Shown here: piece after piece, positions 10,312-35,767 of the stretch
How the letters are laid out: every line of letters starts with the position of its first letter
How positions within the stretch are numbered: the first letter of the stretch is position 1
NCBI GenBank assembly: GCA_937860145.1
Contig: CALMBF010000157.1
Coordinates: 1 to 35,767, forward strand
Reading direction: 5' to 3'
From: an uncultured Geobacter sp.
GTDB lineage: Bacteria; Desulfobacterota; Desulfuromonadia; Geobacterales; DSM-12255
Length of the DNA: 35,767 bases
The notes under the pieces: generated by a model
Seen by the model: the letters and a program-made list of their open reading frames with translations, nothing else
The model's database searches: none
What the model was told of the DNA's origin: nothing
Translations under genes and position numbers: made by a program

Positions 10312-11046
10312 ATGGGAACGACCGGTAACAGAATTGCGCTGGTAGTCGGCGGCAGTCGCGGCATAGGCCGCGCCATAGCACTGAAACTGGCTGCATCGGG
10401 TTTTGATATCTGGCTTACCTACAAGGGTAACCACGAAGCGGCGGCATCGACCAGGGCCGAGATCGAGGCGACCGGAAGGGTTTGCGAAACGATCCCCTTC
10501 GATGTCGCGAGTTTTGCCGAAACGGAAGCGGCACTCCTCCCCCGTCTGGAAAACGCTACCCCGGACGTGATGGTCTATAATTCGGGGATTGCCCGGGATA
10601 ATCTTCTCATGTGGATGTCCCCGGAAGAGTGGCATTCGGTCGTCTCCACCAATCTTGACGGTTTTTTCAATGTCACCAGACAGATTGTCTTTGCCATGCT
10701 CAAGGCCAAGAGGGGGCGGATCGTGGTTATCTCCTCCACGTCGGGACAGGTGGGGCAGGCAGGCCAGGTCAACTACTCCGCATCAAAGGCCGGTCTCATC
10801 GGCGCTGCCAAGGCTCTTGCCCGAGAGGTGGGCAAAAAGAACATCCTTGTGAATGTGGTTGCCCCCGGTTTCATCGAAACCGAGATGACGGCGGAAATCC
10901 CCGCGGAACAGGTACTGCCCCTCATTCCCCTCAACCGGGTCGGTCGGTCAGAGGAGGTTGCCTCGCTGGTCGATTTTCTCTGTACCGAGCCGAACATGTA
11001 CATCCACGGTCAGGTCATCGGTGTCAACGGCGGCCTGGCGATGTAA
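10312..11046 (+). CDS. FabG-like 3-oxoacyl-[ACP] reductase
   Basis: This 244-residue short-chain dehydrogenase should reduce beta-ketoacyl-ACP to 3-hydroxyacyl-ACP with NADPH in the chain-extension cycle. The Rossmann motif GGSRGIG is at residues 13-19, followed by NSG (90-92), catalytic Asn114, Ser142 in ISSTSG, Tyr155 and Lys159 in YSASKAG, and the C-terminal HGQVIGVNGGLAM typical of FabG. All catalytic residues are present. The ATG at 10312 puts the first beta strand at the usual distance; an in-frame GTG at 10249 adds 21 residues without family similarity. It is the first gene of the cluster and the only ketoreductase in the window. It resembles the ketoreductase (ApeQ role) of aryl polyene clusters. 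Confidence 0.93.
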   Translation: MGTTGNRIALVVGGSRGIGRAIALKLAASGFDIWLTYKGNHEAAASTRAEIEATGRVCETIPFDVASFAETEAALLPRLENATPDVMVYNSGIARDNLLMWMSPEEWHSVVSTNLDGFFNVTRQIVFAMLKAKRGRIVVISSTSGQVGQAGQVNYSASKAGLIGAAKALAREVGKKNILVNVVAPGFIETEMTAEIPAEQVLPLIPLNRVGRSEEVASLVDFLCTEPNMYIHGQVIGVNGGLAM

Positions 11047-11125
11047 GCTGGCTAGAAAAATCATTTATTATCAACCTGTTGGCAGACAGTAGTACATGTT
11101 CTGCTGTAACATATTCCGGCGGTAT

Positions 11126-12619
11126 ATGAAAAGGTACGACAACATCGTAGTCGGGAGCGGAATCAGTGGCCTGACCATGACCCTGCTATTGGCCATGAAC
11201 GGCCGCAGGGTCCTCCTCCTGGAAAAAGGGACGCACATCGGTGGCTCACTCTGCCGTTTCCGCAAGGGACAGCTCTCCTTCGACACGGGGTTCCACTTCA
11301 CCGGAGGGCTGAACGACGGGGGGATCCTGGCCGATATCCTCGGCCTGCTCGGCTTGCGGGACATGATCGAGCCGCTCTTTATCGAGGATTCGAGCGAAAA
11401 CCGTTTCATCTTCGAGTCGACAGGCCGCTCCTTCGAGCATCCGGTGGGATTCGCCAATGTGAAGGCCAGATTCCGGGAGTACTTCCCGTCGGAGTCGACG
11501 GCTATCGATGCCTATTTCGACGCGGTGCAGTCGGTCTGCAGCAGGACCCCGTCCCTCAACATCCATGACAACCTGATTGCCCCCCCCAACCTCGAGGAGG
11601 ATTACATCTCCCTGGACGCCGTCCTCAAGGAGATGACCCCCGATCCGCTCCTCCGTGGCCTGCTCTCCGGGTATGCCATGTGTTACGGTGTGCGCCCCGA
11701 CGAAGTCTCTTTTGCCAACCACTGCCGGATGGTGCAGAACTTCTATGAGTCGATCGCTTTCGTCAGGGACGGTGGCGACGGTTTTATCCACGCCTTCAAG
11801 GAGAAGTTCAAGGGGTATGAGGTTGATATCCGCTGTAGCACGACAATTGCCGAGCTTGCCGAGGTAAGCGACAGCCGGGTGCACCGGTTCGTTCTCAGCA
11901 CCGGTGAGGAGGTGAGTGCCGACTCCTGCGTTTTCACCATCCACCCGTCCCAGGTCCTCTCTCTGCTGCCGGAAAAGCAGTACAGTCGTGCCTTTGCCAG
12001 CAGGGTGAACGGCTTCGAACCATCGGCGGGTTTCTTCTCCCTCTTCGCTCGTCTCAAGCCCGGGGCGGCGAGCAGAACAAAAAGCTCCATCGTTTCGCTC
12101 TTCCCCGACCCGGACGTGAACAATCTCCTCGACCCTGAGTGGGGCGGGACTCCCGCCCTGGTCATCATCACGTCTCCCGATGCCCCTGACCCGGACGGGG
12201 GGAAGGGTATCTGCATTTTGGAGCCATCCTTTCCCCGACATGTGGCACAGTGGAGCGATTCCCGTCTGGGCAGCCGGCCCGAGGGGTATCGTGAGTACAA
12301 GGAGCGGCGGGTGTCCGCGATCCGGGAACATCTCTGCTCCGTCTTCCCCCATTACCTGGAGGGGTTGGAGATTCTCGATGCTGGCTCCATGCTGACCTAC
12401 AAGGATTACCTCAACTCGCCCGACGGCAGCGCCTACGGGGTGAAGCAGAAGATGCGCCAGTTCAACATGATCGGCAGGCTGCCGCTTCATAACCTCTATG
12501 CCGCCGGGCAGAGCGCGCTCCTTCCGGGGGTGATCGGCGCCATGATGTCGTCCCTCATCGTGGGGCGCTCCGTGCTGGGGAAGGACGAGTACGGCAGGTT
12601 TCTCGGGAGGGCCGCATGA
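11126..12619 (+). CDS. CrtISO/phytoene-desaturase-like FAD-dependent oxidoreductase
   Basis: The 497-residue enzyme has an N-terminal dinucleotide fold (YDNIVVGSGISGLTMTLLLA, then VLLLEKG, then GGSLCRF) and the C-terminal FAD signature LYAAGQSALLPGVIGAMMSSLIVGRSVLG. The segment FDTGFHFTGGL near residue 65 resembles the carotenoid isomerase/retinol saturase branch rather than classical CrtI. Members isomerise, reduce or desaturate polyene chains, so it may act on the double bonds of the cluster's product (inference). Desaturase-like genes also occur in gene sets proposed for ladderane lipids. ATG at 11126 was preferred to one at 11096 because the fold starts immediately, but neither has a strong ribosome site. 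Its stop overlaps the next start (ATGA). Confidence 0.9.
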   Translation: MKRYDNIVVGSGISGLTMTLLLAMNGRRVLLLEKGTHIGGSLCRFRKGQLSFDTGFHFTGGLNDGGILADILGLLGLRDMIEPLFIEDSSENRFIFESTGRSFEHPVGFANVKARFREYFPSESTAIDAYFDAVQSVCSRTPSLNIHDNLIAPPNLEEDYISLDAVLKEMTPDPLLRGLLSGYAMCYGVRPDEVSFANHCRMVQNFYESIAFVRDGGDGFIHAFKEKFKGYEVDIRCSTTIAELAEVSDSRVHRFVLSTGEEVSADSCVFTIHPSQVLSLLPEKQYSRAFASRVNGFEPSAGFFSLFARLKPGAASRTKSSIVSLFPDPDVNNLLDPEWGGTPALVIITSPDAPDPDGGKGICILEPSFPRHVAQWSDSRLGSRPEGYREYKERRVSAIREHLCSVFPHYLEGLEILDAGSMLTYKDYLNSPDGSAYGVKQKMRQFNMIGRLPLHNLYAAGQSALLPGVIGAMMSSLIVGRSVLGKDEYGRFLGRAA

Positions 12620-13842
12620 AACTGAACCGGGTCGTCATATCCGGCCTGGGGGTCGTGTCACCCTTTGGCAACGGAGTTTCCGCCCTGATGCACGGACTGC
12701 GTGAAGGGCGGAGCGCGGTCAGGTACATGGAGGGGTGGGATCAGTACATCGGCCTGCAGAGCATGCTCGGGGCACCGGTCGAGATGGTCGACGAAAAGCG
12801 GATCCCGCGGCAGAAGCGGCGCTCCATGGGAAGGATGAGCATCTTCGCCGCCCAGGCTGCCGACGAGGCAGTGGCTGATGCGGGCATTTCCCTCGACAGG
12901 GAGGACCTCTGGCGGGTCGGCTGCGTCATCGGGTCGACCATGGGAAGCGCCAAGAGCATCAACGATGCCTTTGAAACCATGCTGCCGGACAGGGACCTGA
13001 GCCGTCTCAACTCGACCATGTTCTTCCAGTGCATGTCACACACCGCCGCGGTCAATACCGCCCAGTATCTCGGCCTGGTGGGGACGGTCATGGCTCCGGC
13101 GGCGGCCTGCGCTTCGGCGCTTCACTCCATCGGGACCGCCTATGACCTGATCCGCCTCGGCAGGCAGGACATCATCCTCTGCGGCGGGGCCGAGGAGTTG
13201 CACCCGACGGTCACCGGCTCCTTCGATATCCTCTTTGCCACCTCCACCCGTTACAACGCCACCCCCTCACTGTCACCTCGTCCCTTCGACCGGGAGCGGG
13301 ACGGCCTGGTGTGCGGCGAGGGGTGCGGCATCCTGGTGCTGGAGGAGTATGAACGGGCCGTCAGGCGCGGTGCACGTATCTACGCAGAGGTCTGCGGTTA
13401 TTCCACCACCGCCAACGGACTGCACGTGAGCCAGTCCAACCGTGATTCCATGGTCGCGTGCATGAAGCAGGCCTTGAGCGAGGCGGGATCGGCCCTGTCC
13501 GACATCGACTACATCAACGCCCATGCCACGGCCACCATCCAGGGGGACATGGAGGAGGCTGAGGCGATTCGCGACCTGTTTGGTGACACCGCCCCGGTCA
13601 GCAGCCTCAAGGGGTATTTCGGCCACACCCTCGGCGCTTCCGGTGCCATCGAGACGGCGGCCACCCTGAAAATGATGGAAGAGGGGGTCATATACCCGAC
13701 CCGCAACCTGGAGCATGTGGCCGATGACTGTGCCGGCATCCGTCACGTCTTTGAACCGGAAGCACGGAAGGTCACCACCATGCTGAAAAACGGCTTTGCC
13801 TTCGGCGGCATCAACGCAGCCCTCGTCTGTCGCACAATCTGA
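12616..13842 (+). CDS. beta-ketoacyl-ACP synthase (FabF-type), Cys-His-His intact
   Basis: This 408-residue condensing enzyme extends an acyl chain with malonyl-ACP. The nucleophile is Cys165 in PAAACASALHS, and the two histidines are His303 in NAHATATIQGD and His337 in KGYFGHTLGASG. The loop NAHATAT replaces the usual NAHGTST, a small but unusual change beside the active site. The GFAFGGINAALV motif closes the fold. Start ATG overlaps the desaturase stop, showing translational coupling. It is followed by an ACP gene 21 bases on. It is one of three full catalytic ketosynthases in the window, and its partner subunit cannot be deduced. Confidence 0.94.
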   Translation: MKLNRVVISGLGVVSPFGNGVSALMHGLREGRSAVRYMEGWDQYIGLQSMLGAPVEMVDEKRIPRQKRRSMGRMSIFAAQAADEAVADAGISLDREDLWRVGCVIGSTMGSAKSINDAFETMLPDRDLSRLNSTMFFQCMSHTAAVNTAQYLGLVGTVMAPAAACASALHSIGTAYDLIRLGRQDIILCGGAEELHPTVTGSFDILFATSTRYNATPSLSPRPFDRERDGLVCGEGCGILVLEEYERAVRRGARIYAEVCGYSTTANGLHVSQSNRDSMVACMKQALSEAGSALSDIDYINAHATATIQGDMEEAEAIRDLFGDTAPVSSLKGYFGHTLGASGAIETAATLKMMEEGVIYPTRNLEHVADDCAGIRHVFEPEARKVTTMLKNGFAFGGINAALVCRTI

Positions 13843-13863
13843 CCACGTATCCAGGAGGATGTC

Positions 13864-14121
13864 ATGACCGAACAGGAGATCATCGACCGTACCAACAAGG
13901 TCTTCGAGGAATCCTTTGAGATAGAACCCGAGCGGCTCGTCCCCGAGGCGCATATCTTCGCCGACCTGGGGCTCGACAGTCTGGACATCGTCGACCTGAT
14001 CGTGGCGCTGCAGACGAGTTTCGGCGTCAAGATCCGCACCGATGAAAAGGTCCGGGAGATCAGGACCCTTGGGGATGTGTACCGCTTCATATCGGCGATC
14101 AAGAACGGCGGACAGGAGTGA
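13864..14121 (+). CDS. acyl carrier protein
   Basis: The 85-residue acidic protein carries the growing chain on a phosphopantetheine arm attached to Ser39 in LGLDSLDIVDLIVAL. It has the ACP four-helix pattern (EIIDRTNKVFEESF, then the DSLD helix, then TLGDVYRFISAI). An ideal AGGAGG lies before the ATG. It lies directly after a ketosynthase and before a PlsC-type acyltransferase, which may use this ACP as donor. A second, divergent ACP is encoded at 32650-32934. Confidence 0.95.
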   Translation: MTEQEIIDRTNKVFEESFEIEPERLVPEAHIFADLGLDSLDIVDLIVALQTSFGVKIRTDEKVREIRTLGDVYRFISAIKNGGQE

Positions 14122-14131
14122 ATCGTCTCCG

Positions 14132-14884
14132 ATGCTGCGGCGCTTGATGCTTTACCTTTTCAACGCGTATTTCTACGCACTGTTCCTGCTCAGTGCGGTG
14201 ACCATGATCCCGCTCCTCACGCTCTATGTGGCATGTACCAGGCCGTTCACCACCCATCGCGCCGCCATGAAGAGATTCCGGCGCGCCATGGTCTGGTGGG
14301 GGAGGGCGGTCGCCCTGATACCCTGGCCGTTCATCAGAATTCGGTATGAGCTGGCCGGTGAGAACGATACAGGCCGGCCGTTCATCTTCATCTGCAACCA
14401 CCGGTCGGCGGTTGATGCTTTTCTCATGGGGGTGCTCCCCCACGAGTTCGTCGAGATCGTCAATGACTGGCCGTTCCGCATCCCTGTCCTCGGCTTCTAT
14501 GCCAGGTACGCAGCGTTCCTGAACATCCGGAACATGGACCATGGCGCATTCGTCTCCAAGGCCGTGCGGCTGCTGCGGGAGGGGGTGTCCATCGTCTTCT
14601 TCCCCGAGGGGACGAGGTCGCCCGGGAAAGGGATGGGGAGTTTCCACGGCACCGCATTCCGCCTGGCACTTGAAACCGGGACCTCGATCATTCCGCTCTG
14701 CATCACCGGCAACGAGATCGTCATGCCCAAGGGTTCGCCCCTGCTGCACCCCGGCACCATACGAGTCCGGCAGCTGCCGGCGGTATCCGGGGCGGAGTAT
14801 GCAGGTCTGAACCACTTCACCCTGAAGAACAGGATTCGAGAGATGATGGAAAAGGAGTTACACCACATGGAGGGTGGCATATGA
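14132..14884 (+). CDS. PlsC-type 1-acyl-glycerol-phosphate acyltransferase homologue
   Basis: The 250-residue membrane-bound acyltransferase has an N-terminal hydrophobic helix (about 6-36), the HX4D catalytic motif NHRSAVD (His90, Asp95) and the acceptor motif FFPEGTRS with Glu159. It should transfer an acyl group from ACP or CoA to a hydroxyl acceptor. In a lipid cluster this may attach the product to a glycerol or sugar backbone (the ApeD-like role in aryl polyene clusters is a comparison, not proof). The ATG at 14132 begins ten bases after the ACP stop; the upstream GGAG is rather distant. Its stop overlaps the next start (ATGA). Confidence 0.92.
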   Translation: MLRRLMLYLFNAYFYALFLLSAVTMIPLLTLYVACTRPFTTHRAAMKRFRRAMVWWGRAVALIPWPFIRIRYELAGENDTGRPFIFICNHRSAVDAFLMGVLPHEFVEIVNDWPFRIPVLGFYARYAAFLNIRNMDHGAFVSKAVRLLREGVSIVFFPEGTRSPGKGMGSFHGTAFRLALETGTSIIPLCITGNEIVMPKGSPLLHPGTIRVRQLPAVSGAEYAGLNHFTLKNRIREMMEKELHHMEGGI

Positions 14885-16179
14885 CCGTCTTCACCCCCCG
14901 CCCCGGCCTCGAATTCCTCTCCCCCGACGAGATCAGAAGCGTCCAGGAAGAGCTGCTGCGCCGTCACGTCACCTATGCAGCAACCGCATCTCCCTATTAT
15001 CGCGAACTGTTCGCGCACCAGGGTATCGACCCCGCCACCGTCACCCTGGAGAGCCTGAAAAGCCTCCCCCTGACCGACAAGTCGGTCTTTTCCAGTCGCA
15101 ACAGCGAGTTTCTGGCGGTGCCCCGGGAGGCGATTGTCGATATCGTCCTCTCTTCCGGCACCACCGGCCAGCCGACCACCGTCATGTACACGGAGAGCGA
15201 CCTGCACCGCCTGACCTACAACGAGGAGATATCCTTCGCCTCGTGCGGGCTCACCGCCAGCGACACGGTGCTCCTCACCTGCACCATCGACCGCTGCTTC
15301 ATCGCCGGTCTGGCCTACTACTCCGGGGTCAGGAAGCTGGGTGCCGCGGCCATCAGGAACGGCCTGGCATCCGTGGAAAGCCACGGGGAGATCATCCGGC
15401 GCCTCAGGCCGTCGGTTCTGGTCGGGGTGCCGACCTTTCTCCTCAAGCTCGGCAGGCATCTCCTCTCCCAGGGGACCGATCCCCAGTCGGTCGGGGTCCG
15501 GAAGCTGGTCTGCATCGGCGAGCCGGTCAGGGACCGCTCCCTTGCCTTTCTCAAGGCCGGCGAAGAGCTTGAGTTCATCTGGGGGGCAAAGGTCTACTCA
15601 ACCTATGCCTCCTCCGAAACCATCACCAGTTTCTGCGAGTGTACCGCCCAGTGCGGCGGGCACCTCCACCCGGACCTGGCAGTGGTCGAGATCGTCGATG
15701 AACAGGGGTGCCCGCTCCCCTGCGGCGAGGTGGGTGAGGTGGTCGTGACCCCCCTGGGGATCGAGGGGATGCCCCTGGTCCGTTTCCGGACCGGCGACAC
15801 CGGCTTTCTCCTGGATGGTCCCTGTCTCTGCGGTCGCAACTCTGTCCGGCTGGGCCCCATCCTCGGCCGGATGAGGCAGATGATGAAGCTCAAGGGGACC
15901 ACCATCTACCCCGAATCCATTTACGCAGTCATGGATACCATCCCGGGGGTGAGCGAATATTTCGTCACCGCGTCGTCCGACTACGACCTGTCCGACCAGG
16001 TAAGGGTCTATGTCGCGGTGAACGACGGCTCCTGCAGCGAAGGGGTGATCCTGGAGAGGTTGCAGGCCGCGCTGAGGGTCCGCCCCGAGGTCATCATCAC
16101 GTCGGAGGAGACCGTCAATCGCTGGCGCAATGCCGGTAACTCCCGCAAGCTGATCCGCTTCATCGATGAAAGAAAATGA
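14881..16179 (+). CDS. AMP-forming acyl/aryl ligase, phenylacetate-CoA-ligase-like
   Basis: The 432-residue enzyme belongs to the ANL adenylating superfamily, PaaK-like branch. Visible motifs are the P-loop SSGTTGQPT (about 91-99), YASSET, RFRTGD, the hinge region GRMRQMMKLKGTTIYPESI and a C-terminal lysine in NSRKLIRF. Clustered cysteines (FCECTAQCGGH and GPCLCGR) resemble the zinc-binding loop of short aryl ligases. It should activate a carboxylic acid as acyl-AMP and pass it to CoA or an ACP; with type II PKS-like genes around, a starter-loading role is likely. PaaK relatives often use aromatic acids, suggesting an aromatic starter, but substrate specificity cannot be read from sequence by eye. 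No ammonia lyase for making a cinnamic acid is present. Confidence 0.92.
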   Translation: MTVFTPRPGLEFLSPDEIRSVQEELLRRHVTYAATASPYYRELFAHQGIDPATVTLESLKSLPLTDKSVFSSRNSEFLAVPREAIVDIVLSSGTTGQPTTVMYTESDLHRLTYNEEISFASCGLTASDTVLLTCTIDRCFIAGLAYYSGVRKLGAAAIRNGLASVESHGEIIRRLRPSVLVGVPTFLLKLGRHLLSQGTDPQSVGVRKLVCIGEPVRDRSLAFLKAGEELEFIWGAKVYSTYASSETITSFCECTAQCGGHLHPDLAVVEIVDEQGCPLPCGEVGEVVVTPLGIEGMPLVRFRTGDTGFLLDGPCLCGRNSVRLGPILGRMRQMMKLKGTTIYPESIYAVMDTIPGVSEYFVTASSDYDLSDQVRVYVAVNDGSCSEGVILERLQAALRVRPEVIITSEETVNRWRNAGNSRKLIRFIDERK

Positions 16180-27918: not shown

Positions 27919-28804
27919 ACGGAAAAGGGGAAACCGGCTCGGCATCTGGTTCTTCCAGACTGCCGCACGCCTGACCGGTCTGAAGGGGGCTTACGGTCTC
28001 CTCTACATCGTCTGCACCTACTACCTGCTCGACCTCCCGCTGGTCCGGGAAACGCTCCCCTACATCCGCCGTCGCTTCCCCACCCACGGCCCGCTGCGCC
28101 GTCTTTTCGACCTGTATCTCCTCTTCGTCAGCCAGGGGAAATGCCTCCTCGACCGTTTTGCCATCTCGGCCGGCTACGACGGCATCGGGGTCGACATCGT
28201 CGGCTACGACAGGCTCGGGGAACTGCTGACTGACGACAACAGGGGATTCATTCTCCTTACCGCCCACGTGGGGAGCTGGCAGGTGGCCATGTCGTCCCTC
28301 GACAGGTTCGACCGTGACGTCTATGCCATGATGCGCCCCGAGGACAATGCCGCCGTTCGCGAGGCCCTCGAACTCGGCACCGACAGCGAGCGGATCAGGG
28401 TCATCCTCACCAGCGGCGCCCTGGGGGGCGTGGTAGAGGCGTTGCAGGCCCTGGAGAGCGGTGCCCTGGTGACCATCATGGGGGACCGTCCCTACGACTT
28501 CCCCTCGGTCGGAGTACAGTTTCTCGGCGGCGAGGTCCGCTTCCCCCACGGCGCCTTCACCCTTGCGGCGGCAGCCAGATGCCCCGTGGTAGTGCTCCTC
28601 TCCGCCAAGGTCGCGGCCTATCGTTACGTTGTCGATGTGAGCAATATCATCCCGCCGCCGGAAAAGGTGCGCGGCCGGGGGAACGAGGCGATCACCGCCG
28701 CCGTGCAGCGGTACGCCCGAATCCTCCAGGAGTACGTGGAAACATACCCGCTCCAGTGGTTCGTCTTCCGGGACATCTGGAAGGAGAGGGGGGGGAAATC
28801 GTGA
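27893..28804 (+). CDS. LpxL/HtrB-like lipid acyltransferase, catalytic acid replaced by Gln
   Basis: The 303-residue membrane-associated protein resembles lipid A late acyltransferases and the acyltransferase half of aryl polyene ApeJ-type proteins. It has an N-terminal hydrophobic segment (AYGLLYIVCTYYLL) and the motif FILLTAHVGSWQVA, where His125 is kept but the HX4D/E acid is Gln130. Other family blocks follow (DRPYDFPSVGVQFLGGEVRFPHGAFTLA). The Gln may alter the reaction or mark a subfamily. ATG at 27893 is a good start; it overlaps the glycosyltransferase by 26 bases, so the two are coupled. It ends overlapping the SbcD-like start. Confidence 0.88.
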   Translation: MPVRRNGVERKRGNRLGIWFFQTAARLTGLKGAYGLLYIVCTYYLLDLPLVRETLPYIRRRFPTHGPLRRLFDLYLLFVSQGKCLLDRFAISAGYDGIGVDIVGYDRLGELLTDDNRGFILLTAHVGSWQVAMSSLDRFDRDVYAMMRPEDNAAVREALELGTDSERIRVILTSGALGGVVEALQALESGALVTIMGDRPYDFPSVGVQFLGGEVRFPHGAFTLAAAARCPVVVLLSAKVAAYRYVVDVSNIIPPPEKVRGRGNEAITAAVQRYARILQEYVETYPLQWFVFRDIWKERGGKS

Positions 28805-30051
28805 TCAGGTTCATCCATACCGCCGACATCCACCTGGGGAAGACCTACCGCACCTCGACAGGCGAGGGGGAGCGCTACGAGGACTTTTTCCGCATGCTCG
28901 GCAGCATCGTGGCCGACGCCGTTAGCGAACAGGTCGACTTCGTCCTCATCGCCGGCGACCTGTTCCACACCGGCCAGATCCTCCCCCGGACCTTTGCCCG
29001 CACCATCGAGACCCTGCAGACGCTCAAGGATAACCATGTCCCGTGCATCGCCGTTGAGGGGAACCACGACTGGATCCACCGCCGGGACAGCATCTCCTGG
29101 ATGGAGGCGCTCTCCCAGATGGGCTACATCCGCCTGCTCCGCCCCTCGCGCACGGAGAGTGGCGGCTACCGTTTCGATCCGTTCGATCCGGCGACCGGCA
29201 TGGGGGGGCACATCGAGATCAAGGGGCTCAACATCTACGGCCTCGGCTACATCGGCACCCAGGCCGGTGCCCATGTGGGGCGCATCTGCGAGGCGGTGAC
29301 GACTGGGAACAACCTCCTTCTCTTCCACGTGGGGATATGGACCTATTCGCCGGTGGAGATCGGCAACATGAAGCCGGAGGAGGCGCTGCCGCTGGCCGCT
29401 GTCTTCGACTACGTCGCCCTCGGCCACGGTCACAAACCCTACATCATCTCCACCACCGGAGGCCGCCCCTGCGCTTTCAACCCGGGTTCACCCGAATGCG
29501 TCAATTTCGGCGAGGAGAGATACGACAAGGGGTATTACCTCGTTACCGTCGCGGACGGAGTCTATGCCCACGAGTTCCGCCCGACCGACCCGCGCCCCAT
29601 GCTGGTGACCACGATCGATCTCGACGGTGCCGATGATGCTGACACAGCGCTGCTACGCTTCCGCGAACAGGTCGGCGCGATGTGCGCGGCGATCGATGAT
29701 GACCGCCAGCCGCTCCTGGAGGTGAAACTCACCGGCCGGGTCGGTTTCCACCCCTTCGAACTGGGCCGGGAGCGGCTTCGCCTGGCTCTCGGGGAGATCT
29801 GCAATCCCCTCCATGTGGAGATCAAGAACCACCTCTCCCTGGTCACTGCCGGCAGTGGCACCGAAACCGAGAAGAAGAGCCTTGCCGAAATCGAGCGGGA
29901 GGTGCTCAGGGATCTGGTTGCCGCGAAAAGCGAGTACAAGGGCCGGGAGGATGAGCTGGTGCGCCTGTCTCTGGCGATTCGTGACCAGGTCCTCAAGGGC
30001 GAGGTGGATGGCGAGGAACTGCTGGGACTCCTGATGCGGGAGCCTGCCTGA
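28801..30051 (+). CDS. sbcD: SbcD/Mre11-like DNA nuclease subunit
   Basis: The 416-residue calcineurin-type phosphoesterase has the five-part metal motif: ADIHLGK (Asp9, His11), GDLFH (Asp53), GNHDW (Asn88, His89), LLLFHVG and GHGHKP. With SbcC it cuts blocked DNA ends and hairpins. The GTG at 28801 overlaps the acyltransferase stop (GTGA), putting a DNA repair gene inside a lipid operon. The C-terminal 120 residues are helical and charged and would cap SbcC. The symbol names the family; a canonical pair elsewhere in the genome cannot be excluded. Confidence 0.92.
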   Translation: MIRFIHTADIHLGKTYRTSTGEGERYEDFFRMLGSIVADAVSEQVDFVLIAGDLFHTGQILPRTFARTIETLQTLKDNHVPCIAVEGNHDWIHRRDSISWMEALSQMGYIRLLRPSRTESGGYRFDPFDPATGMGGHIEIKGLNIYGLGYIGTQAGAHVGRICEAVTTGNNLLLFHVGIWTYSPVEIGNMKPEEALPLAAVFDYVALGHGHKPYIISTTGGRPCAFNPGSPECVNFGEERYDKGYYLVTVADGVYAHEFRPTDPRPMLVTTIDLDGADDADTALLRFREQVGAMCAAIDDDRQPLLEVKLTGRVGFHPFELGRERLRLALGEICNPLHVEIKNHLSLVTAGSGTETEKKSLAEIEREVLRDLVAAKSEYKGREDELVRLSLAIRDQVLKGEVDGEELLGLLMREPA

Positions 30052-32504
30052 TGCAGATACTTTCCCTTCACCTGAAGAACATCAAGTCCCACCGCGACAC
30101 TGAACTCTCCTTTTCCGCCGGTATCAACGTCCTTTCCGGCCCCAACGGCGTCGGCAAGAGCACGGTGTTCGAAGCCATCGGTTATGCCCTGTTTGGTGTC
30201 GATGCCAGGGACTTCGTCTCCAACATCGACCGGTTCCTCTCCATCGGTGCCAATAAGGGGGAGATCACCGTCACGTTCCGCACGGACGCCGGAGAAACCT
30301 GGCGGGTGACCCGTACCGTCGGCACTCCTGCCAAGTGGCTTCTGGCAAGGGAGCAGGGCGGGGAGTTCGAAGTGGAGGAGCACGCCCGCATCGAGGAGAC
30401 CGAAACCCGCATCGCCGCACTCCTGGGACTCGACAACGGCCGTCCTCTGGCGGACCAGTTCAAGCTGGTGATCGGTCCCTTCCAGAACGAATTCCTCGGC
30501 CCTTTCGTCATCAAGCAGCCCACCAAGCGGCAGGATGCGTTCGACGAGATCCTGGGTATCGATGCCTGGCGGAAGACCTTCAGGAACACCAGCTCGCTGC
30601 TCGCAACGGTTCAGGAGAAGGTGAAGCTTCTTGCCGTTGAAATAGAGGGGAAAGAGAATCAGCTCGCCGTCCTCCCCGAGTACGAGGAGGAGATGGCGAA
30701 GGTAACGGCGGATGCGGTGGAGCTCCGAAAGGCCCATGCGGTTCATGCGGAAGCCCTGCGGACAGTAGAGGAGCGTCTTGTCGAGCTTGATGGACAGGAA
30801 AAAAGGATTGCCGCCCTCCAGGCCGACATCCTGATCCTTGCCAACCGCATCTCTGATGGCGAAGGGAAGGTCCGGGACCAGAAGCAGCGGGTAGAAGAGG
30901 CTGAGAAGGCTGGCAAGGTTCTGGAACAGACCCGGCCGGGCAAGGACGCGTATGAAGGGGCCGAGTCGACGCTTGTGACATTGCGGGAGAAGGAGCAGCA
31001 GCGTCGTGACATAGAGAAGGAGGTCGCTCTCCTGGAACAGGCGGCCCAGCGCCTGACCCAGGCAGCCGACCACGAGCGGAACGAGATAGAGATGGCAGGC
31101 AGGCTGATCACGGATGACGAAGCCGCCCTCGCCAAGGAACGGAAGGGACTCCAGCCTGACCCGAAAGTGATGGAGTCGGCTGCCCGGCTCACCGCCCTGC
31201 GGAGCGAGGCCAACCGTCTCCGGACGGAAAGGGGACTGCTGGACGGGCGCAGAGCCGCTCTTCTGGAGGGGCAGGAGAAACTTGGCGAGGGGATTTGTCC
31301 CTTCTTCAAGGAATCGTGTCAGAACGTTGCGGGAACCACTCCGATGGATGTGTTCACCGCACGGCTTGCAGACCTCGACAGGCAGGTGCATGGCATCTCC
31401 GAAGCCTTGGGAAAGCTTTCCCTGGAGGTAGCTGCCGCCGAGGAGGCAGAGAAGGGACTTGCTGCCTTCACGGTCCGGGTCCAGGAACTGGACAGGCAGG
31501 CTATGAACCTTGCAGAACGCCGCGCAAGGAACCAGGACCGTGCTGTCAAGCTGGCAGGAGTGGTTTCACAACACGCCGAGGCAGCGGCCCGGGTAAAAAG
31601 GCGCACGGACGATCTTCAGCTCTTTGCCGGCCTCGATGCAGAGATAGCTGCGGCTACCAAGGATCGTGCCCGGTTCCAGTCAGACCGCGACGCCTACCAT
31701 GCCCACGAGAAGGATGGCCTCGATCTGGACAATCGCCGCCAGTCGCTGGACAAGATGCTTCGTCTTCTGGATGAGCTTCAGAAACAGCTCGGCGCGAAGA
31801 ATGAAGAGCTTGACCGTCTCCGGGGTGCGTACCAGCACGACAGGCACGGGGAAGCCCGTAACGAGAAGGACAGGCTCGTAGCGAACGTAGCCGCGCTGCG
31901 CCAGCAGATGGCAGACCTGGAGAAGGATCGGGCGCGCCTCGAGGGGGAGATCGGCAAGCTGAAAGCGCTCAAGGAAGAGATCGACCGGAAACTGGCCGAG
32001 AAGGTCTCATTTGAGCAGAAAGAACAGCTGGTCAGGTTCCTCCGCAACCAGGTCTTCAAGAACGTTTCAGCCCAGCTCTCCGAGCGCTTCAGGGAGGAGA
32101 TAAGCCTGCGTGCCGACCGGATCTACCGGACCATTGCGGAGGCTGACGAAGAGCTGATCTGGGGCGAGAACTACCAGATCATCCTGCGGGATATGGCCGA
32201 TGGCGCAGTCCGCGAGCGGAGCGACGACCAGCTCTCCGGAGGCCAGACCATGAGCGCCGTAGTGGCCCTGCGTCTGGCACTGCTGCAGACCATTGGCGCC
32301 CGGATCGCCTTCTTCGACGAACCGACCTCGAATCTGGACTCGGCGCGGCGGGAAAACCTGGCCAAGGCCTTCCGGGCAATCGATGTGGGGCGCGAGGAGG
32401 TGACGGAGCATTGGTACGATCAGCTCTTCCTCGTCAGCCATGACGTTGCGTTCACCGAGATTACCGATCAGATGATCGATCTCGGAGCTGCCGGAGAGCC
32501 ATGA
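30051..32504 (+). CDS. sbcC: SbcC/Rad50-like SMC ATPase with CX6C hook
   Basis: The 817-residue protein has Walker A GPNGVGKST (30-38), two long coiled-coil arms, the hook at the middle (CPFFKESC, Cys416 and Cys423), the signature LSGGQTMSAVVALRLAL and Walker B IAFFDEPTSNLD near the C-terminus. The canonical zinc hook is CXXC; here two cysteines are six residues apart. It is shorter than E. coli SbcC (about 1050). Its start overlaps the sbcD stop (TGATG). Together they form an ATP-driven end-processing nuclease. A 145-base gap follows before the lipid genes resume. Confidence 0.93.
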   Translation: MQILSLHLKNIKSHRDTELSFSAGINVLSGPNGVGKSTVFEAIGYALFGVDARDFVSNIDRFLSIGANKGEITVTFRTDAGETWRVTRTVGTPAKWLLAREQGGEFEVEEHARIEETETRIAALLGLDNGRPLADQFKLVIGPFQNEFLGPFVIKQPTKRQDAFDEILGIDAWRKTFRNTSSLLATVQEKVKLLAVEIEGKENQLAVLPEYEEEMAKVTADAVELRKAHAVHAEALRTVEERLVELDGQEKRIAALQADILILANRISDGEGKVRDQKQRVEEAEKAGKVLEQTRPGKDAYEGAESTLVTLREKEQQRRDIEKEVALLEQAAQRLTQAADHERNEIEMAGRLITDDEAALAKERKGLQPDPKVMESAARLTALRSEANRLRTERGLLDGRRAALLEGQEKLGEGICPFFKESCQNVAGTTPMDVFTARLADLDRQVHGISEALGKLSLEVAAAEEAEKGLAAFTVRVQELDRQAMNLAERRARNQDRAVKLAGVVSQHAEAAARVKRRTDDLQLFAGLDAEIAAATKDRARFQSDRDAYHAHEKDGLDLDNRRQSLDKMLRLLDELQKQLGAKNEELDRLRGAYQHDRHGEARNEKDRLVANVAALRQQMADLEKDRARLEGEIGKLKALKEEIDRKLAEKVSFEQKEQLVRFLRNQVFKNVSAQLSERFREEISLRADRIYRTIAEADEELIWGENYQIILRDMADGAVRERSDDQLSGGQTMSAVVALRLALLQTIGARIAFFDEPTSNLDSARRENLAKAFRAIDVGREEVTEHWYDQLFLVSHDVAFTEITDQMIDLGAAGEP

Positions 32505-32649
32505 ACAGACGGGAGAGCGTCCCCTTTGCTCCTGGGTGAAGGAAATATCTTTCCAAATCAGCGGGAATAGTGCAAAATATCAAGTTCAGTAATCGGCTGC
32601 CGACGCGTGTTGAGGGTAGCTGTCTGCATATTCACACAAGGAGCGGAAC
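32505..32649. other. 145-base gap splitting the cluster
   Basis: This is the only clear break of more than 60 bases in the cluster after the CrtISO-like gene at 11126. It is AT-richer than its neighbours and ends with the AAGGAG of the second ACP. It probably holds a promoter for ACP2 and downstream genes, but I cannot point to a definite -35/-10 pair or a terminator hairpin. Confidence 0.4.
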
Positions 32650-32934
32650 ATGGCTGACAGGGAACAGGAACTGCGTGAAATTAGGAAATCCCTGAAGGAG
32701 ATGCTTGTCAGAGACCTTTCTCTTGAAGATATTAACCCCGAAGACATCAAGGATGACGAAGTCCTGTTCGGTGACGGCCTCGGCCTCGACTCGCTGGACG
32801 CTGTGGAGATCGTCGTCCTCCTGCAGAGGAATTTCGGTCTCGAGGTAAAAACCATGGACCAGGGGAGGGAGATCTTCTACTCCATCGACACCATTGCCAA
32901 CTTCATCTATGAGAACAGGAAAAAAGACGCCTGA
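32650..32934 (+). CDS. acyl carrier protein 2
   Basis: The 94-residue acidic protein has the phosphopantetheine site Ser48 in LGLDSLDAVEIVVLLQRNFG and an N-terminal extension of about ten charged residues. A strong AAGGAG lies before the ATG. It lies after a fresh 145-base gap that may hold a promoter and opens the last gene block (ACP, deacetylase, ketosynthase pair). It differs considerably from the ACP at 13864 and may carry a different stage or chain. Confidence 0.94.
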   Translation: MADREQELREIRKSLKEMLVRDLSLEDINPEDIKDDEVLFGDGLGLDSLDAVEIVVLLQRNFGLEVKTMDQGREIFYSIDTIANFIYENRKKDA

Positions 32935-32953
32935 CAAGCCGTTGTACGGCACG

Positions 32954-33919
32954 ATGCGCCGACTCTTCTTCATCCTGGCAACAACGATCATTCTGAACTC
33001 CTGTGCCATGGGTACCGTCCGCACCGACACACCTCCAGCCGGATCCGTCCCCATGGTTTCGTTTGTCTTCGACGATGGCAATGACACCGACTATCTCGTC
33101 GGGAAGGATCTATTTGCCGCCCATGGCGCCGTTGCCTCGTCTGCAGTAACCACCGGCTTCATCAATTCCGCCAACCACATGACCACGGCCCAGATACTGG
33201 AGTTGCAGCGAGCCGGATGGGAAATAATGGGGCATACCGTCACCCATCCGAACCTGAAGTCCCTCTCCGTCGAGGCCCTCGACGCGGAACTGGCAGGGGC
33301 AAAGGCAGAGTTGCATCGCAGTGGCATCACGGTCAGCAACCTCGTCTATCCGTACAACAAGAACGATGAAACCGTGAGAGGGGTCGCTGCCCGGTATTAT
33401 CGTTCCGGCCGCGGCGGCACGAACGCCTTCAACAGTCCCGGCCTTGATCCCTACTTCATCAGGTCGTTCAGCATGAAACACGACCTGGCGCTGTCGAAGG
33501 GGCTGATCGACAGGGCGTACGCGGAGAAGAGATGGCTCGTCTTCTACCAGCACGAGATTGACGCCAAGGTCAAGATCAGCGACTATGACGGGACCTTCAT
33601 CAAGGGAGAGATGGTACAGCTTTCCCCCTCGGGTGCCACCGGACGGTTCGTGACCACCCACTGGTTCCCGTTTTACGGCCATGCCGCGTACCTGGTACCT
33701 CTCGCCGGTGCGCCCCGGCCAGGGGATACGCTCAGGGGAGCCACCAGCGGCGCCACCGCGACTCTTGACTCTGTCATCTACAACGAACGGGAGCAGCTTG
33801 ACGAGATGCTGTCCTACATCAGGAACACCTACCCACTGATGCAGATTGTCACGATCGACAAGGGACTGGATCTCCTCGGCATCCCGCGGTTTTCGGGCGG
33901 AGCCTATGCGCAGCGGTGA
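32954..33919 (+). CDS. lipoprotein polysaccharide deacetylase
   Basis: The about 321-residue product has a lipoprotein signal (LFFILATTIILNSC) and a NodB-type deacetylase domain: SFVFDDGNDTD supplies the metal-binding Asp pair, MGHTVTHPNL the His-x3-His, and LVYPYNKND a further motif; it would remove N- or O-acetyl groups from a sugar at the periplasmic side. The C-terminal 130 residues include an inserted beta segment, GDTLRGATSGATATLDSVIY, of the kind seen in phage and surface proteins. The ATG at 32954 gives the best signal peptide, but the ribosome site is weak, and ATG at 32909 inside the ACP gene is possible. Overlaps the next gene by 14 bases. Confidence 0.85.
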   Translation: MRRLFFILATTIILNSCAMGTVRTDTPPAGSVPMVSFVFDDGNDTDYLVGKDLFAAHGAVASSAVTTGFINSANHMTTAQILELQRAGWEIMGHTVTHPNLKSLSVEALDAELAGAKAELHRSGITVSNLVYPYNKNDETVRGVAARYYRSGRGGTNAFNSPGLDPYFIRSFSMKHDLALSKGLIDRAYAEKRWLVFYQHEIDAKVKISDYDGTFIKGEMVQLSPSGATGRFVTTHWFPFYGHAAYLVPLAGAPRPGDTLRGATSGATATLDSVIYNEREQLDEMLSYIRNTYPLMQIVTIDKGLDLLGIPRFSGGAYAQR

Positions 33920-35081
33920 ATTTCTCATAACCGGACTCGGAACGGTCTCGGCAGTGGGTGGAGATCTCCCCGCCGCCCTGGAGAACATGGCTTCGGGCAA
34001 ACGGAACGCTTCCGCCGTCACCCTGTTCCCCACGTCTCTGCCGTATCCCGTGTTCCAGGCCGGCCTGCTCGAATCCCGTGACGACGACCTGGAAGGTCTG
34101 CGCACCATCGCCCTCCTACAGTGTGCGGTGGACGAAGCACTCAGGACTGCCCGTGTCGCATCGACCGAGGGTCAGCGCATCGGCATCTGCATCGGCACGA
34201 CGGTGGCAAGCCAGCTCAACGATCTCGGTTTCTACCGTGCCTACCGCGAGAGCGGCACCCCCCCCCTCCAGCCGGTCAACAGGTTTCTCAAGGGGAACCC
34301 GGCCGAATACCTTGCCCACCGGCTGAAAACACGGGGTCCTGCCCTGACCGTCGTGAATGCCTGCTCGTCCGGGACCGACGCTGTCGGCGTGGCCCTCACC
34401 TGGCTCAAGGCGGGCCTGTGTGACATGGTCATTGCCGGTGGCGCCGACGAACTGAACCATATCCCCTATGCCGGCTTCTCCTCCCTCGGCATTCTCAACC
34501 CCGGCCTCTGCGCACCTTTCGACAGGGAGCGCAGGGGGCTCAACCTGGGGGAGGGGGCTGGCGTCATGGTCATAGAACCGAGGGCTGCCGCGGTGCGGAG
34601 GGGAGAAAAACCCGACCTGTTCCTGGCCGGCTACGGGCTCTCCAGCGATGCCTATCACCTGACCGCTCCGAGTCCCGATGGTGTGGGCCTCAGGGCGGCC
34701 ATCTCCGCCGCCCTGGCGGAGGCAGGTGTCGGACCTGGGGACATTTCCTTTGTCAATGCCCATGGCACCGGGACCCATGACAATGACCTGGTCGAGGGGA
34801 AGGTGCTGGCCGAACTGTTCGGCCCCGCGGTCAAGGTGGTGTCCACCAAGGGGTACACCGGTCACACCCTCGGCGCGGCAGGCGGAATCGAGGCAGTTTT
34901 CACGGCAGCCGGCCTGAGGGACGGCTGGATCCCGGCAAGCGCCGGATTCTCCCTGAGAGACGAAGAGATCCCCCTTGCACCGGTATGCCGCAATACCCGC
35001 ATCAACGGCAGCTTTGCCCTCTCGACATCACTGGCCTTCGGCGGCAACAATGCCGCGCTGGTCATCGGCAGGGAGGGGTGA
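33906..35081 (+). CDS. beta-ketoacyl-ACP synthase, Cys-His-His intact
   Basis: The 391-residue condensing enzyme has Cys153 in VVNACSSGTDA, His286 in NAHGTGTHDND and His320 in KGYTGHTLGAAGGIE, plus the closing LAFGGNNAALV. It should be active. It is followed five bases on by the Cys-less relative at 35087, an arrangement typical of a KS and chain-length-factor heterodimer of type II polyketide systems. ATG at 33906 is supported by a GGAG close upstream. Confidence 0.94.
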   Translation: MRSGEFLITGLGTVSAVGGDLPAALENMASGKRNASAVTLFPTSLPYPVFQAGLLESRDDDLEGLRTIALLQCAVDEALRTARVASTEGQRIGICIGTTVASQLNDLGFYRAYRESGTPPLQPVNRFLKGNPAEYLAHRLKTRGPALTVVNACSSGTDAVGVALTWLKAGLCDMVIAGGADELNHIPYAGFSSLGILNPGLCAPFDRERRGLNLGEGAGVMVIEPRAAAVRRGEKPDLFLAGYGLSSDAYHLTAPSPDGVGLRAAISAALAEAGVGPGDISFVNAHGTGTHDNDLVEGKVLAELFGPAVKVVSTKGYTGHTLGAAGGIEAVFTAAGLRDGWIPASAGFSLRDEEIPLAPVCRNTRINGSFALSTSLAFGGNNAALVIGREG

Positions 35082-35086
35082 CCGGT

Positions 35087-35767
35087 ATGCAGGTCCTCGG
35101 TATCGGCACCATATGCGCCCAGGGGTACGGCATCGGCTCTTTCGAGCATGCCCTTGAAAACAGCCTGATCCCGTCCGGCGGCTCCGGAGACAACCCGTAC
35201 TGGGTCGATTTCGACGCGGTGACCGACAGGAGCCTACTGAAGAAGCTGCGCCGGGCGGACAAGCTCAGCAAGATGTCCGTTCTCGCGGCGGCAGCGGCGC
35301 TGCACGATGCGAACATCGACGATATCGCTGCACACCGGGTCGGCATCATCCTCGCCACGGCATTCGGCGCCCACGTGACGACCTTCAACTTCCTCGACGG
35401 CATCCTGGATTTCGGAGAAGCGAGCGCGTCACCGACCGAGTTTTCCAACTCGGTCCACAATGCGGCAGCATCGTACATCTCGTCGGCACTGGAGATCAAG
35501 GGACCGACCCTTACGGTCACCCGCTTCCGCTTCTCCTTCCCGTCGGCACTCCAGCTGGCACATGGATGGCTTGCGCAGGGGCGCTGCGACTATCTTCTCG
35601 TCGGCGCTACGGAGCAGTACGGCACCGTGCTCGGCCATGTGGCCGGGCGGAAACTCCTCCAACCGGCGAAGGGGATCATCACCCCGTTCGTCTTCAATCC
35701 GGCCGGCCAGGTGCAGGGGGAGGGGGCGGCGTTCTTCCTGCTCGGGAGGGGAGAACCGGGGAACGGC
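35087..35767 (+). CDS. chain-length-factor-like ketosynthase without active-site Cys (partial, cut by window end)
   Basis: The first 227 residues are visible and the frame runs off the right edge. The fold is ketosynthase-like: MQVLGIGTIC, RVGIILATAFGAHVTT, the conserved EFSNSVHNAAASYISSALEIKGPTLTV, and CDYLLVGATEQ. Where the catalytic Cys stands in the preceding gene (NACSSG), this protein reads TRFRFSF, with Arg148 at the aligned place. It is therefore probably a non-catalytic partner that sets chain length (inference from type II systems). The C-terminal histidines cannot be checked. The ATG starts five bases after the ketosynthase stop. Confidence 0.88.
   Translation, partial: MQVLGIGTICAQGYGIGSFEHALENSLIPSGGSGDNPYWVDFDAVTDRSLLKKLRRADKLSKMSVLAAAAALHDANIDDIAAHRVGIILATAFGAHVTTFNFLDGILDFGEASASPTEFSNSVHNAAASYISSALEIKGPTLTVTRFRFSFPSALQLAHGWLAQGRCDYLLVGATEQYGTVLGHVAGRKLLQPAKGIITPFVFNPAGQVQGEGAAFFLLGRGEPGNG

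What the first reader, a model, noticed from the sequence alone, without database searches (positions are those of the whole stretch)
10312..35767. Hybrid aryl-polyene-like lipid cluster with three radical SAM enzymes
The sequence shows type II PKS/FAS genes (three full and one half ketosynthase plus a Cys-less partner, two ACPs, one KR, two hotdog dehydratase modules, thioesterase, AMP ligase), LolA/MMPL/DUF3261 transport genes, two acyltransferases and a glycosyltransferase. These are the parts of aryl polyene clusters. Three radical SAM enzymes and a CrtISO-like oxidoreductase are added, recalling gene sets proposed for ladderane lipids. No enoyl reductase is visible, so an unsaturated chain is expected. 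Inference: a new class of modified polyene lipid exported to the outer membrane.
Basis: partly seen in the sequence, partly recalled or inferred. Interest (0 to 1): 0.85.

Follow-up and report, generated by a model that had tools for sequence, protein, structure and literature searches.

The report
Radical-SAM polyene lipid gene cluster
A long operon in a Geobacter-like bacterium carries the gene set that makes and exports aryl-polyene pigments together with radical enzymes of the kind suspected of building the strange "ladderane" lipids of anammox bacteria, one of them fused to a chain-building enzyme, and the same gene order recurs in several unrelated groups of mostly uncultured bacteria.

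Summary
The inventory is right. Window 10312-35767 holds a KR, a CrtISO-like flavoenzyme, three KS, a half-KS, a Cys-less KS, two ACPs, two hotdog DH modules, TE, AMP ligase, LolA/MMPL/DUF3261, two acyltransferases, a glycosyltransferase and three radical SAM (rSAM) enzymes. SbcCD (28801-32504) does not belong; the contig ends inside the Cys-less KS, and contig C178 very likely continues the cluster with two more B12-type rSAM genes. The order is conserved: of 46 loci found with the rSAM-DH protein, 35 keep at least 5 genes colinear, in Thermodesulfobacteriota, Nitrospirota, Omnitrophota and Lentisphaerota. Thirteen of 17 E. coli Ape proteins tested have a counterpart, one weak. P is TIGR04072 "rSAM_ladder_B12" (617 bits, cut-off 360), and related loci repeat the published Kuenenia ladderane-candidate order. 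Not found described: an rSAM/SPASM enzyme fused to the Glu-bearing half of an ApeI:ApeP-type dehydratase. Best reading: an aryl-polyene-type type II PKS polyene lipid, rSAM-modified on the ACP, exported to the outer membrane. Product unknown; "aryl" not shown. The kind was noted in 2009 (PMC2649909); this is a new variant tying two families together.

The parts
10312..11046 (+). A: ketoreductase (SDR); profile fits ApeQ 229 and E. coli FabG 224 bits (tied); best NCBIfam FlxB 290 (cut-off 340, not reached); also matches PF13561
11096..12619 (+). B: CrtISO/phytoene-desaturase-like flavin oxidoreductase
12616..13842 (+). C: ketosynthase of the ApeR type (421 bits; groups with ApeR 100/99)
13864..14121 (+). 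D: acyl carrier protein of the ApeF type
14147..14884 (+). E: PlsC-type acyltransferase, ApeD-like (start uncertain)
14881..16179 (+). F: AMP ligase, FlxY/phenylacetate-CoA-ligase-like (436 bits, FlxY cut-off 520 not reached)
16221..17708 (+). G: radical SAM/SPASM enzyme (about residues 1-346) fused to an ApeP-like hotdog dehydratase half (about 352-495)
17678..18367 (+). H: LolA-like carrier (LolA2_flexi 127.2 bits, cut-off 125)
18360..20738 (+). I: MMPL/RND exporter, ApeM-like
20735..21418 (+). J: DUF3261/LolB-like protein, weak ApeN match (E 0.0035), below the Pfam cut-off
21426..21779 (+). K: ApeI-like hotdog dehydratase half with the catalytic His
21776..22252 (+). L: 4HBT thioesterase, ApeK-like
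22249..23388 (+). M: ketosynthase; groups with KS of Kuenenia-type clusters (100/98)
23385..24041 (+). N: half ketosynthase; Cys position not conserved
24100..25371 (+). O: B12-type radical SAM protein, no curated family cut-off reached; model nearest AprD4
25368..26729 (+). P: B12-binding radical SAM, TIGR04072 rSAM_ladder_B12
26722..27918 (+). Q: GT2 glycosyltransferase + DUF2062, matches ApeJ (126 bits)
27893..28804 (+). R: LpxL-type acyltransferase, matches ApeJ (84 bits) (start uncertain)
28801..32504 (+). S,T: SbcD/SbcC nuclease pair lying inside the operon, not part of the pathway
32650..32934 (+). U: acyl carrier protein of the ApeE type
32954..33919 (+). V: polysaccharide-deacetylase-like protein (start uncertain)
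33906..35081 (+). W: ketosynthase of the ApeO type; ortholog in 28 of 31 genomes examined
35078..35767 (+). X: Cys-less ketosynthase (chain-length-factor-like), cut by the contig end; very likely continues on contig C178

Best explanation
This is a type II polyketide cluster of the aryl-polyene kind that makes a polyene chain on an acyl carrier protein, modifies it with radical SAM enzymes, anchors it to a glyco/acyl lipid and exports it to the outer membrane. Proposed steps, all inferred from homology and residues: ligase F loads a starter acid; ApeR-type KS C primes; W with X (and M with N) elongate; A reduces; the K:G2 heterodimer dehydrates (K gives His, G2 gives Glu). No dedicated enoyl reductase is recognised, so each cycle would leave an alkene. 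The rSAM/SPASM domain is tethered to the dehydratase and so is placed to act on the fresh ACP-bound enoyl or polyenoyl chain. B12-type rSAM enzymes P and O, and two more on contig C178, act on the chain or its end group; B isomerises or adjusts its oxidation state. L releases; E, R and Q attach acyl and sugar parts; H, I and J export. The chemistry of the radical steps is not known.
For: Profile matches to the E. coli Ape set, 13 of 17 (gene list from PMC8253772, passages). KS tree: C with ApeR 100/99, W with ApeO 93/93. Complementary half sites: His in 29 of 29 K rows and Glu at the other place in none; Glu in 41 of 41 G2 rows and the HF motif in none; the E. coli ApeI and ApeP sequences show the same split. 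Fold: G 354-495 on ApeP of the ApeI:P heterocomplex 6qsr_B, Z 18.8, rmsd 4.1, 142 aligned; G 11-343 on SPASM maturase SuiB, Z 25.6, rmsd 3.4, 305 aligned. CxxxCxxC in 40 of 40 G1, 23 of 23 O and 21 of 21 P rows. P over the TIGR04072 cut-off. Colinear conservation across phyla. Tight coupling: 22 of 23 neighbouring gene pairs overlap or lie within 60 bases.
Against: I know of no product for any member. F does not match ApeH (E 0.52). No PF00221 aromatic lyase or PF04345 chorismate lyase was found in the 95% complete host genome (controls rang in 5 and 1 of 14 genomes), so an aryl starter has no obvious source. X matches ApeC only weakly (E 0.0031). A fits FabG as well as ApeQ and also matches PF13561, titled enoyl-ACP reductase; flavoenzyme B could also be a reductase. 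ApeO is a long branch, so the W-ApeO join is unsure, and W beats FabF by only 14 bits. DUF3261 is below its Pfam cut-off. FabZ folds score within about 1 Z of ApeP. The known arylpolyenes of anaerobic Clostridia come from a type I PKS (PMC12144888, abstract and part 1 of 4).
Confidence: 0.6

Rival explanations
1. An ordinary aryl polyene or flexirubin-type pigment in which the rSAM enzymes only decorate the head group (for example C-methylation or oxygen-free replacement of oxygenase steps) and do not touch the chain.
For: F is FlxY-like and A FlxB-like as best hits, H is over the LolA2_flexi cut-off. AA on C178 is HpnR-like, a methylase family (238 bits, cut-off 650). Structures of CysS and TokK, which the listing describes with pantetheinylated substrates, align to O.
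Against: FlxY and FlxB cut-offs are not reached; no PF00221 aromatic lyase in the genome. The rSAM/SPASM domain is fused to the chain dehydratase, not to a head-group enzyme. O fits the diol dehydratase AprD4 (Z 31.4) better than the methylases listed (MgmA Z 25.3).
Confidence: 0.22
2. A polyunsaturated fatty acid or hydrocarbon pathway, or a ladderane-like cyclised lipid pathway, as proposed for Kuenenia and Desulfotalea; the polyene is a precursor that the rSAM enzymes cyclise.
For: P is rSAM_ladder_B12. L189 has the order deacetylase - (two unknowns) - KS - CLF-like KS - methyltransferase - KS - half KS - ligase - G1 - P - KR - ACP - DH - GT, which parallels kuste3351-3335 as listed in PMC4790861 and PMC2649909. 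PMC2649909 found C31:8 and C31:9 hydrocarbons in Desulfotalea.
Against: Kuenenia genes were compared by published annotation and order only. No ladderanes were identified in Desulfotalea. The E. coli expression study says its efforts to elucidate the pathway were not successful (PMC4790861 abstract). No methyltransferase family was found among genes A-X to correspond to kuste3338 or kuste3347.
Confidence: 0.13
3. Several unrelated operons placed side by side, the rSAM genes serving another pathway.
For: SbcCD does sit inside the block.
Against: Colinear in 35 of 46 loci from several phyla, rSAM genes included where the locus reaches them; G is physically fused to a pathway DH.
Confidence: 0.03

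Closest known systems
Aryl polyene clusters (E. coli CFT073 apeA-R; Xenorhabdus doucetiae)
   Same: Counterparts of ApeD/E/F/I/J/K/L/M/O/P/Q/R, weak ones of ApeN and ApeC; the same dehydratase half-site split; the same export trio
   Different: No ApeH, ApeG or ApeB match (ApeA not tested); adds KS pair M:N, CrtISO-like B, three rSAM in the window and two more on C178; DH-P fused to rSAM/SPASM
Ladderane candidate cluster kuste3335-3352 and Desulfotalea/Geobacter relatives (PMC2649909, PMC4790861)
   Same: rSAM pair, phenylacetyl-CoA-ligase-like gene, phytoene-desaturase-like gene, FabF with non-canonical FabF, ACPs, FabG, FabZ, GT, deacetylase, membrane transporter; P in TIGR04072
   Different: Window has LolA, DUF3261, TE, PlsC and LpxL acyltransferases, ApeR-type KS and the fusion, none of them named in the published Kuenenia list; no counterpart of the two SAM methyltransferases among A-X; compared by annotation and order, not by sequence
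Flexirubin clusters (NCBIfam Flx models)
   Same: LolA2_flexi over its cut-off; FlxY and FlxB best hits
   Different: FlxY and FlxB below cut-off; no PF00221 aromatic lyase in the genome; rSAM enzymes added
Geobacterales-wide rSAM/KS cluster (L025, L027, L028 and others)
   Same: GT, rSAM/SPASM, O- and P-like rSAM, KR, KS, CLF-like KS, LolA, MMPL in one block; its P homolog is also TIGR04072 (395 bits)
   Different: About 23-44% identity to the window genes, rSAM/SPASM not fused to a DH, different order
Polycyclopropanated polyketide pathways (jawsamycin, fuelimycin; passages of PMC13389473)
   Same: Precedent for an rSAM enzyme (the cyclopropanase) acting with an iterative PKS whose listed domains (KS, AT, DH, ACP, KR, CP, TE) include no enoyl reductase
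   Different: Type I iterative PKS and a HemN-like cyclopropanase; no homology was tested here

Membership tests
Aryl polyene (APE) cluster | ApeR- and ApeO-type ketosynthases | tested here: met
   C to ApeR 421 bits (FabB 341); W to ApeO 248 (FabF 234); tree 100/99 and 93/93, the latter not starred
Aryl polyene (APE) cluster | ApeI:ApeP complementary dehydratase halves | tested here: met
   fold
Aryl polyene (APE) cluster | ApeC chain-length factor | tested here: inconclusive
   X to ApeC E 0.0031; ApeC not among the six best hits shown for N
Aryl polyene (APE) cluster | Export trio ApeL/M/N | tested here: met
   H-ApeL 36, I-ApeM 113 bits; J-ApeN weak, E 0.0035
Aryl polyene (APE) cluster | ApeH starter-activating synthetase | tested here: not met
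   F to ApeH E 0.52; F is FlxY/PaaK-like
Aryl polyene (APE) cluster | Aryl starter supply | tested here: inconclusive
   no PF00221 or PF04345 match in the 95% complete genome; other sources not tested
Aryl polyene (APE) cluster | Aryl polyene product | not testable with these tools
   needs chemistry
Ladderane candidate clusters | TIGR04072 rSAM_ladder_B12 | tested here: met
   616.8 bits, cut-off 360
Ladderane candidate clusters | Ligase, second rSAM, FabF + non-canonical FabF, desaturase-like gene together | tested here: met
   F, G1, W, X, B; order link through L189, L194, L195
Ladderane candidate clusters | SAM methyltransferases of the kuste3338/3347 kind | tested here: not met
   no methyltransferase family among genes A-X; contig C178 not scanned with Pfam; relative L158 has a methyltransferase after the last rSAM gene
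Ladderane candidate clusters | Ladderane lipid in the organism | not testable with these tools
   needs chemistry
Flexirubin cluster | FlxY and FlxB above curated cut-off | tested here: not met
   436 against 520; 290 against 340
Flexirubin cluster | LolA2_flexi above cut-off | tested here: met
   127.2 against 125
AprD4-like radical SAM (protein O) | Curated family NF033070 cut-off | tested here: not met
   32.7 against 500 bits; fold only: Z 31.4, rmsd 2.6, 370 aligned

The most novel reading that the evidence does not exclude
The fused rSAM/SPASM-dehydratase is the core of a radical, chain-modifying polyene synthase: after each dehydration by the K:G2 pair the tethered radical domain forms a new C-C bond or ring in the ACP-bound chain. 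Then the ladderane pathway of anammox bacteria is a branch of the same aryl-polyene-type type II PKS, its all-trans polyene coming from KS/KR/DH cycles without enoyl reductase rather than from desaturases.
Probability: 0.15. Interest if true: 0.92.

Novelty: new variant of a known kind. Interest (0 to 1): 0.62.

Why it matters
How ladderane rings are made is an open question (PMC4790861 abstract, PMC9821293 passages). The window-type cluster joins genes of the aryl-polyene machinery, which is understood, with the rSAM family of the ladderane candidate set, and shows one rSAM enzyme tethered to the dehydratase. That gives a concrete, testable idea: a type II PKS makes the polyene, and radical enzymes work on it while it is on the ACP. 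It may also explain why 'ladderane' gene clusters are called in many bacteria not known to make ladderanes. If the product is only a decorated pigment, it is still a widespread uncharacterised lipid of bacteria from several phyla.

Tried and rejected
Flexirubin membership was considered because F, A and H hit Flx models; rejected as a filing since FlxY and FlxB are below cut-off and no PF00221 lyase is found. Plain FASII was rejected: the genome has KS C-domains elsewhere, on C116 and C117, besides the three in the window, and C and W fit ApeR and ApeO better than FabB and FabF (W by only 14 bits). The roughly 36% homologs of P in many relatives proved, where looked at, to lie in a different Geobacterales-wide block. 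G000:C158 was first noted as the likely rest of the cluster; comparison showed C178 instead. The fusion looked rare (full length in 2 of 38 genomes including the window's); wider samples changed that: 25 of 28 matching genomes among 288 of the phylum that holds the Lentisphaerota loci match over both domains and 10 of 12 among 295 of the phylum of L082, Nitrospirota, whereas in the sample of the window's phylum 19 of the 20 matching genomes among 395 match over the rSAM part only, the 20th being the window's own. One origin of the fusion was neither shown nor ruled out: 4-5 label changes on a tree of 43 rows, for which I kept 18 of 40 fused rows, 21 stand-alone and 4 Geobacterales rows; many forks open. 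Not achieved: direct sequence comparison with Kuenenia genes (no handle to anammox genomes). Literature searches (open-licence PubMed Central papers only) gave, in titles, abstract starts and the passages I opened, no such fusion and no rSAM enzyme in an aryl polyene cluster; most listed papers were not opened. Rfam gave no match in the window.
Full report
OBSERVATION. The window is one whole contig (G000:C157, 35767 bases) of a 3.96 Mb, 207-contig genome listed as 95% complete and 3.8% contaminated. Genes A-X run on the + strand from 10312 to the contig end; 22 of 23 neighbouring pairs overlap or lie within 60 bases. Three things need correcting. The SbcD/SbcC pair at 28801-32504 lies inside the operon (its start overlaps R by 4 bases), but nothing like it was matched in the 20 extended related loci L147-L166, of which 15 hold both R and U. 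A polysaccharide-deacetylase-like gene (V) was missed. The contig ends inside X. Contig C178 of the same genome begins with a frame matching residues 231-351 of an X ortholog (45%) and goes on with a third ACP, a conserved protein of about 440 residues, a FAD oxidoreductase, a B12-type rSAM, a second AMP ligase and another B12-type rSAM (the families were read on the same genes of relative L158). That the two contigs adjoin is inferred. The full cluster then has five rSAM genes.

CONSERVATION. A scan of genome contigs (one genome for each of 84,980 species) with an alignment of two rSAM/SPASM-DH proteins gave 46 loci; it rests on two peptide patterns and is not exhaustive. 38 of 46 encode both domains in one frame, 6 the rSAM part alone (L105-L107, L111-L113), one is cut by a contig end (L116) and one is unrelated in context (L115, 21%). 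In 35 of the 46 at least 5, and in 22 at least 12, of the genes A-Q are colinear on one strand; four more have only 2-4 genes, on contigs under 5 kb; seven (L105-L107, L111-L113, L115) show no such cluster in the stretch held. Record names and the tree listings place them in Thermodesulfobacteriota (Geobacteraceae, Desulfobacterales), Nitrospirota, Omnitrophota and Lentisphaerota, with some labelled Myxococcota or only 'bacterium'. An ortholog of W at E 1e-60 is found in 28 of 31 genomes that hold these loci; the misses are the genomes of L077, L100 and L111. X lies near W in 26 of the 28; the other two (L142, L144) are short loci. The order R-U-V-W-X without SbcCD is seen, for example, in L147, L156, L158, L159. 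In samples of whole phyla the G protein matched in 20 of 395 (window's phylum, E 1e-100; 19 of them rSAM part only, the other the window itself), 28 of 288 (phylum that also holds the Lentisphaerota loci, E 1e-70; 25 over both domains) and 12 of 295 (phylum of L082, Nitrospirota, E 1e-100; 10 over both domains).

THE ARYL POLYENE HALF. Profiles built from the related loci were run against 17 Ape proteins of E. coli CFT073 (ApeB-ApeR; ApeA not taken) plus E. coli FabF, FabB, FabG and AcpP (names from PMC8253772 Table 1, passages). Best hits in bits: C-ApeR 421, D-ApeF 60, E-ApeD 44, G2-ApeP 39, H-ApeL 36, I-ApeM 113, K-ApeI 27, L-ApeK 95, Q-ApeJ 126, R-ApeJ 84, U-ApeE 67, W-ApeO 248 (FabF 234), A-ApeQ 229 (FabG 224, a tie), J-ApeN 6.8 (weak). 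That is 13 of 17 Ape proteins with a counterpart, ApeN weakly. No match: ApeH, ApeG, ApeB; ApeC only weakly with X (E 0.0031). M is nearer FabF than any Ape protein. In a KS tree of 47 rows that I chose, C joins ApeR at 100/99; W joins ApeO at 93/93 with a long ApeO branch; M joins KS of the Kuenenia-like loci L189 and L194 at 100/98. The ApeI:ApeP split is kept: K has the His in 29 of 29 rows and never Glu at the other place, G2 has the Glu in 41 of 41 rows and never the HF motif; E. coli ApeI shows GHF and ApeP ELMAQ. In these row counts, and in the rSAM motif counts below, one genome appears twice (L021 and L071) and L023 comes from a cluster without the fusion; seven loci without the cluster were left out. 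That these residues are the FabZ-type catalytic pair is recalled.

THE RADICAL HALF. G is an rSAM with a SPASM cysteine set (pattern recalled; invariant residues) and a C-terminal ApeP-like domain. Its AlphaFold model (31 sequences, mean pLDDT 86, pTM 0.84) aligns at 11-343 with SuiB (Z 25.6, rmsd 3.4, 305 aligned) and at 354-495 with ApeP of the ApeI:P heterocomplex (Z 18.8, rmsd 4.1, 142 aligned); FabZ structures, anammox FabZ among them, are within about 1 Z. No curated NCBIfam cut-off is reached among the hits shown for G or O. P reaches TIGR04072 'rSAM_ladder_B12' at 616.8 bits (cut-off 360), as do its homologs in L082, L108, L189, L190, L194 and L195 and in the Geobacterales-wide block (395 bits, L028). 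O is among the best conserved genes (64-83% identity to the window in A2, two Lentisphaerota loci included). Its model (20 sequences, pLDDT 83, pTM 0.80) is nearest AprD4, a radical SAM 1,2-diol dehydratase (Z 31.4, rmsd 2.6, 370 aligned), ahead of the methylase MgmA (Z 25.3) and of OxsB, CysS and TsrM (Z about 23). A shared fold shows no function.

THE LADDERANE LINK. Rattray et al. (PMC2649909, parts 1-4 of 7 read) described FASII clusters with rSAM and phytoene-desaturase-like genes in Kuenenia and syntenic ones in Desulfotalea psychrophila, with similar clusters in Geobacter and Pelobacter. Javidpour et al. (PMC4790861: outline, abstract, two sections, passages) list kuste3335-3352: GT, desaturase, (membrane protein), methylase, FabZ, ACP, FabG, rSAM, rSAM, phenylacetyl-CoA ligase, unknown, FabF, methylase, non-canonical FabF, FabF, ACP, hypothetical, unknown; PMC2649909 calls 3351 deacetylase-like. 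Locus L189, found through the rSAM domain of G, reads deacetylase, (two unknowns), KS, CLF-like KS, methyltransferase, KS, half KS, ligase, G1 (46%), P (38%, TIGR04072), KR, ACP, FabA-type DH, GT; no desaturase-like gene was matched there. By position G1 corresponds to kuste3343 and P to kuste3342; this is inference from order, since no Kuenenia sequence of these genes could be reached. By function 14 of the 18 Kuenenia genes have a counterpart among A-X; 3338, 3345, 3347 and 3352 do not.

MECHANISM. Shown by sequence: gene content, order, conservation, intact rSAM motifs (40 of 40 G1, 23 of 23 O, 21 of 21 P rows), split dehydratase site, fusion. No FabI/FabK-type gene was called among A-X; A matches PF13561, titled enoyl-ACP reductase, but so does the SDR of L028, and NCBIfam ranks A with FlxB and FabG (best 25 of 222 shown). 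Inferred: starter loading by F, priming by C, elongation by W:X and M:N, reduction by A, dehydration by K:G2, radical modification of the ACP-bound chain by the tethered SPASM enzyme and by O and P, release by L, anchoring by E/Q/R, export by H/I/J. The tether argues that the radical step follows or accompanies dehydration. Polycyclopropanating PKS systems are a precedent for rSAM action with an iterative PKS (PMC13389473, passages). The starter need not be aryl: no PF00221 or PF04345 match was found in the genome (the control genomes rang in 5 and 1 of 14).

NOVELTY. Such clusters are known as 'ladderane' or ladderane-like BGCs of unknown function (PMC9902471 section 10), so the kind is not new. 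What I did not find described in the listings and passages seen (open-licence papers only) is the near-complete aryl-polyene set together with the ladderane rSAM family, the rSAM/SPASM-dehydratase fusion, and its gene order across phyla. The tree of the rSAM domain puts the window's protein with Geobacteraceae L071, Myxococcota-labelled L076 and 'Nitrospirae' L073 (100/99), which suggests transfer between phyla or misbinned MAG contigs.

Noticed in passing
28801-32504: SbcD/SbcC nuclease genes sit inside the operon (SbcD start overlaps R by 4 bases); no match to them in the 20 extended related loci.
   Followed up: partly
3201-7356 (-): NiFe hydrogenase genes upstream on the other strand: cytochrome b561, large subunit (PF00374) and small subunit; the first two frames overlap as listed.
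   Followed up: no
7982-8899 (+): ParB-like protein and, at 8959-9684 (-), an M23 peptidase next to the cluster start; LuxR-type regulator at 24-674 (-).
   Followed up: no
L028 6876-18610 and similar loci L025, L027, L030, L032, L033, L038, L039: A second rSAM/KS/LolA block with a P homolog appears in many relatives of the order, also in a single-contig genome (G022); it may be the easier system for experiments.
   Followed up: partly
L071 18926-19678 (same genome as L002, L021): The P homolog of Geobacteraceae MAG Cfx3-08 comes in two pieces (78% and 75%); the first ends in undetermined residues, so probably an assembly gap.
   Followed up: no
L158 7410-8765 and L169 616-2025: A conserved ~440-residue protein downstream of X; the L158 copy has no Pfam match at E 0.001 and no NCBIfam match at E 1e-10.
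   Followed up: no
L023 (G004:C165): A related cluster in the same bacterial family has the ApeP-like domain as a separate short frame (36%) and no rSAM/SPASM domain matched in the stretch, while O is kept at 66%.
   Followed up: partly
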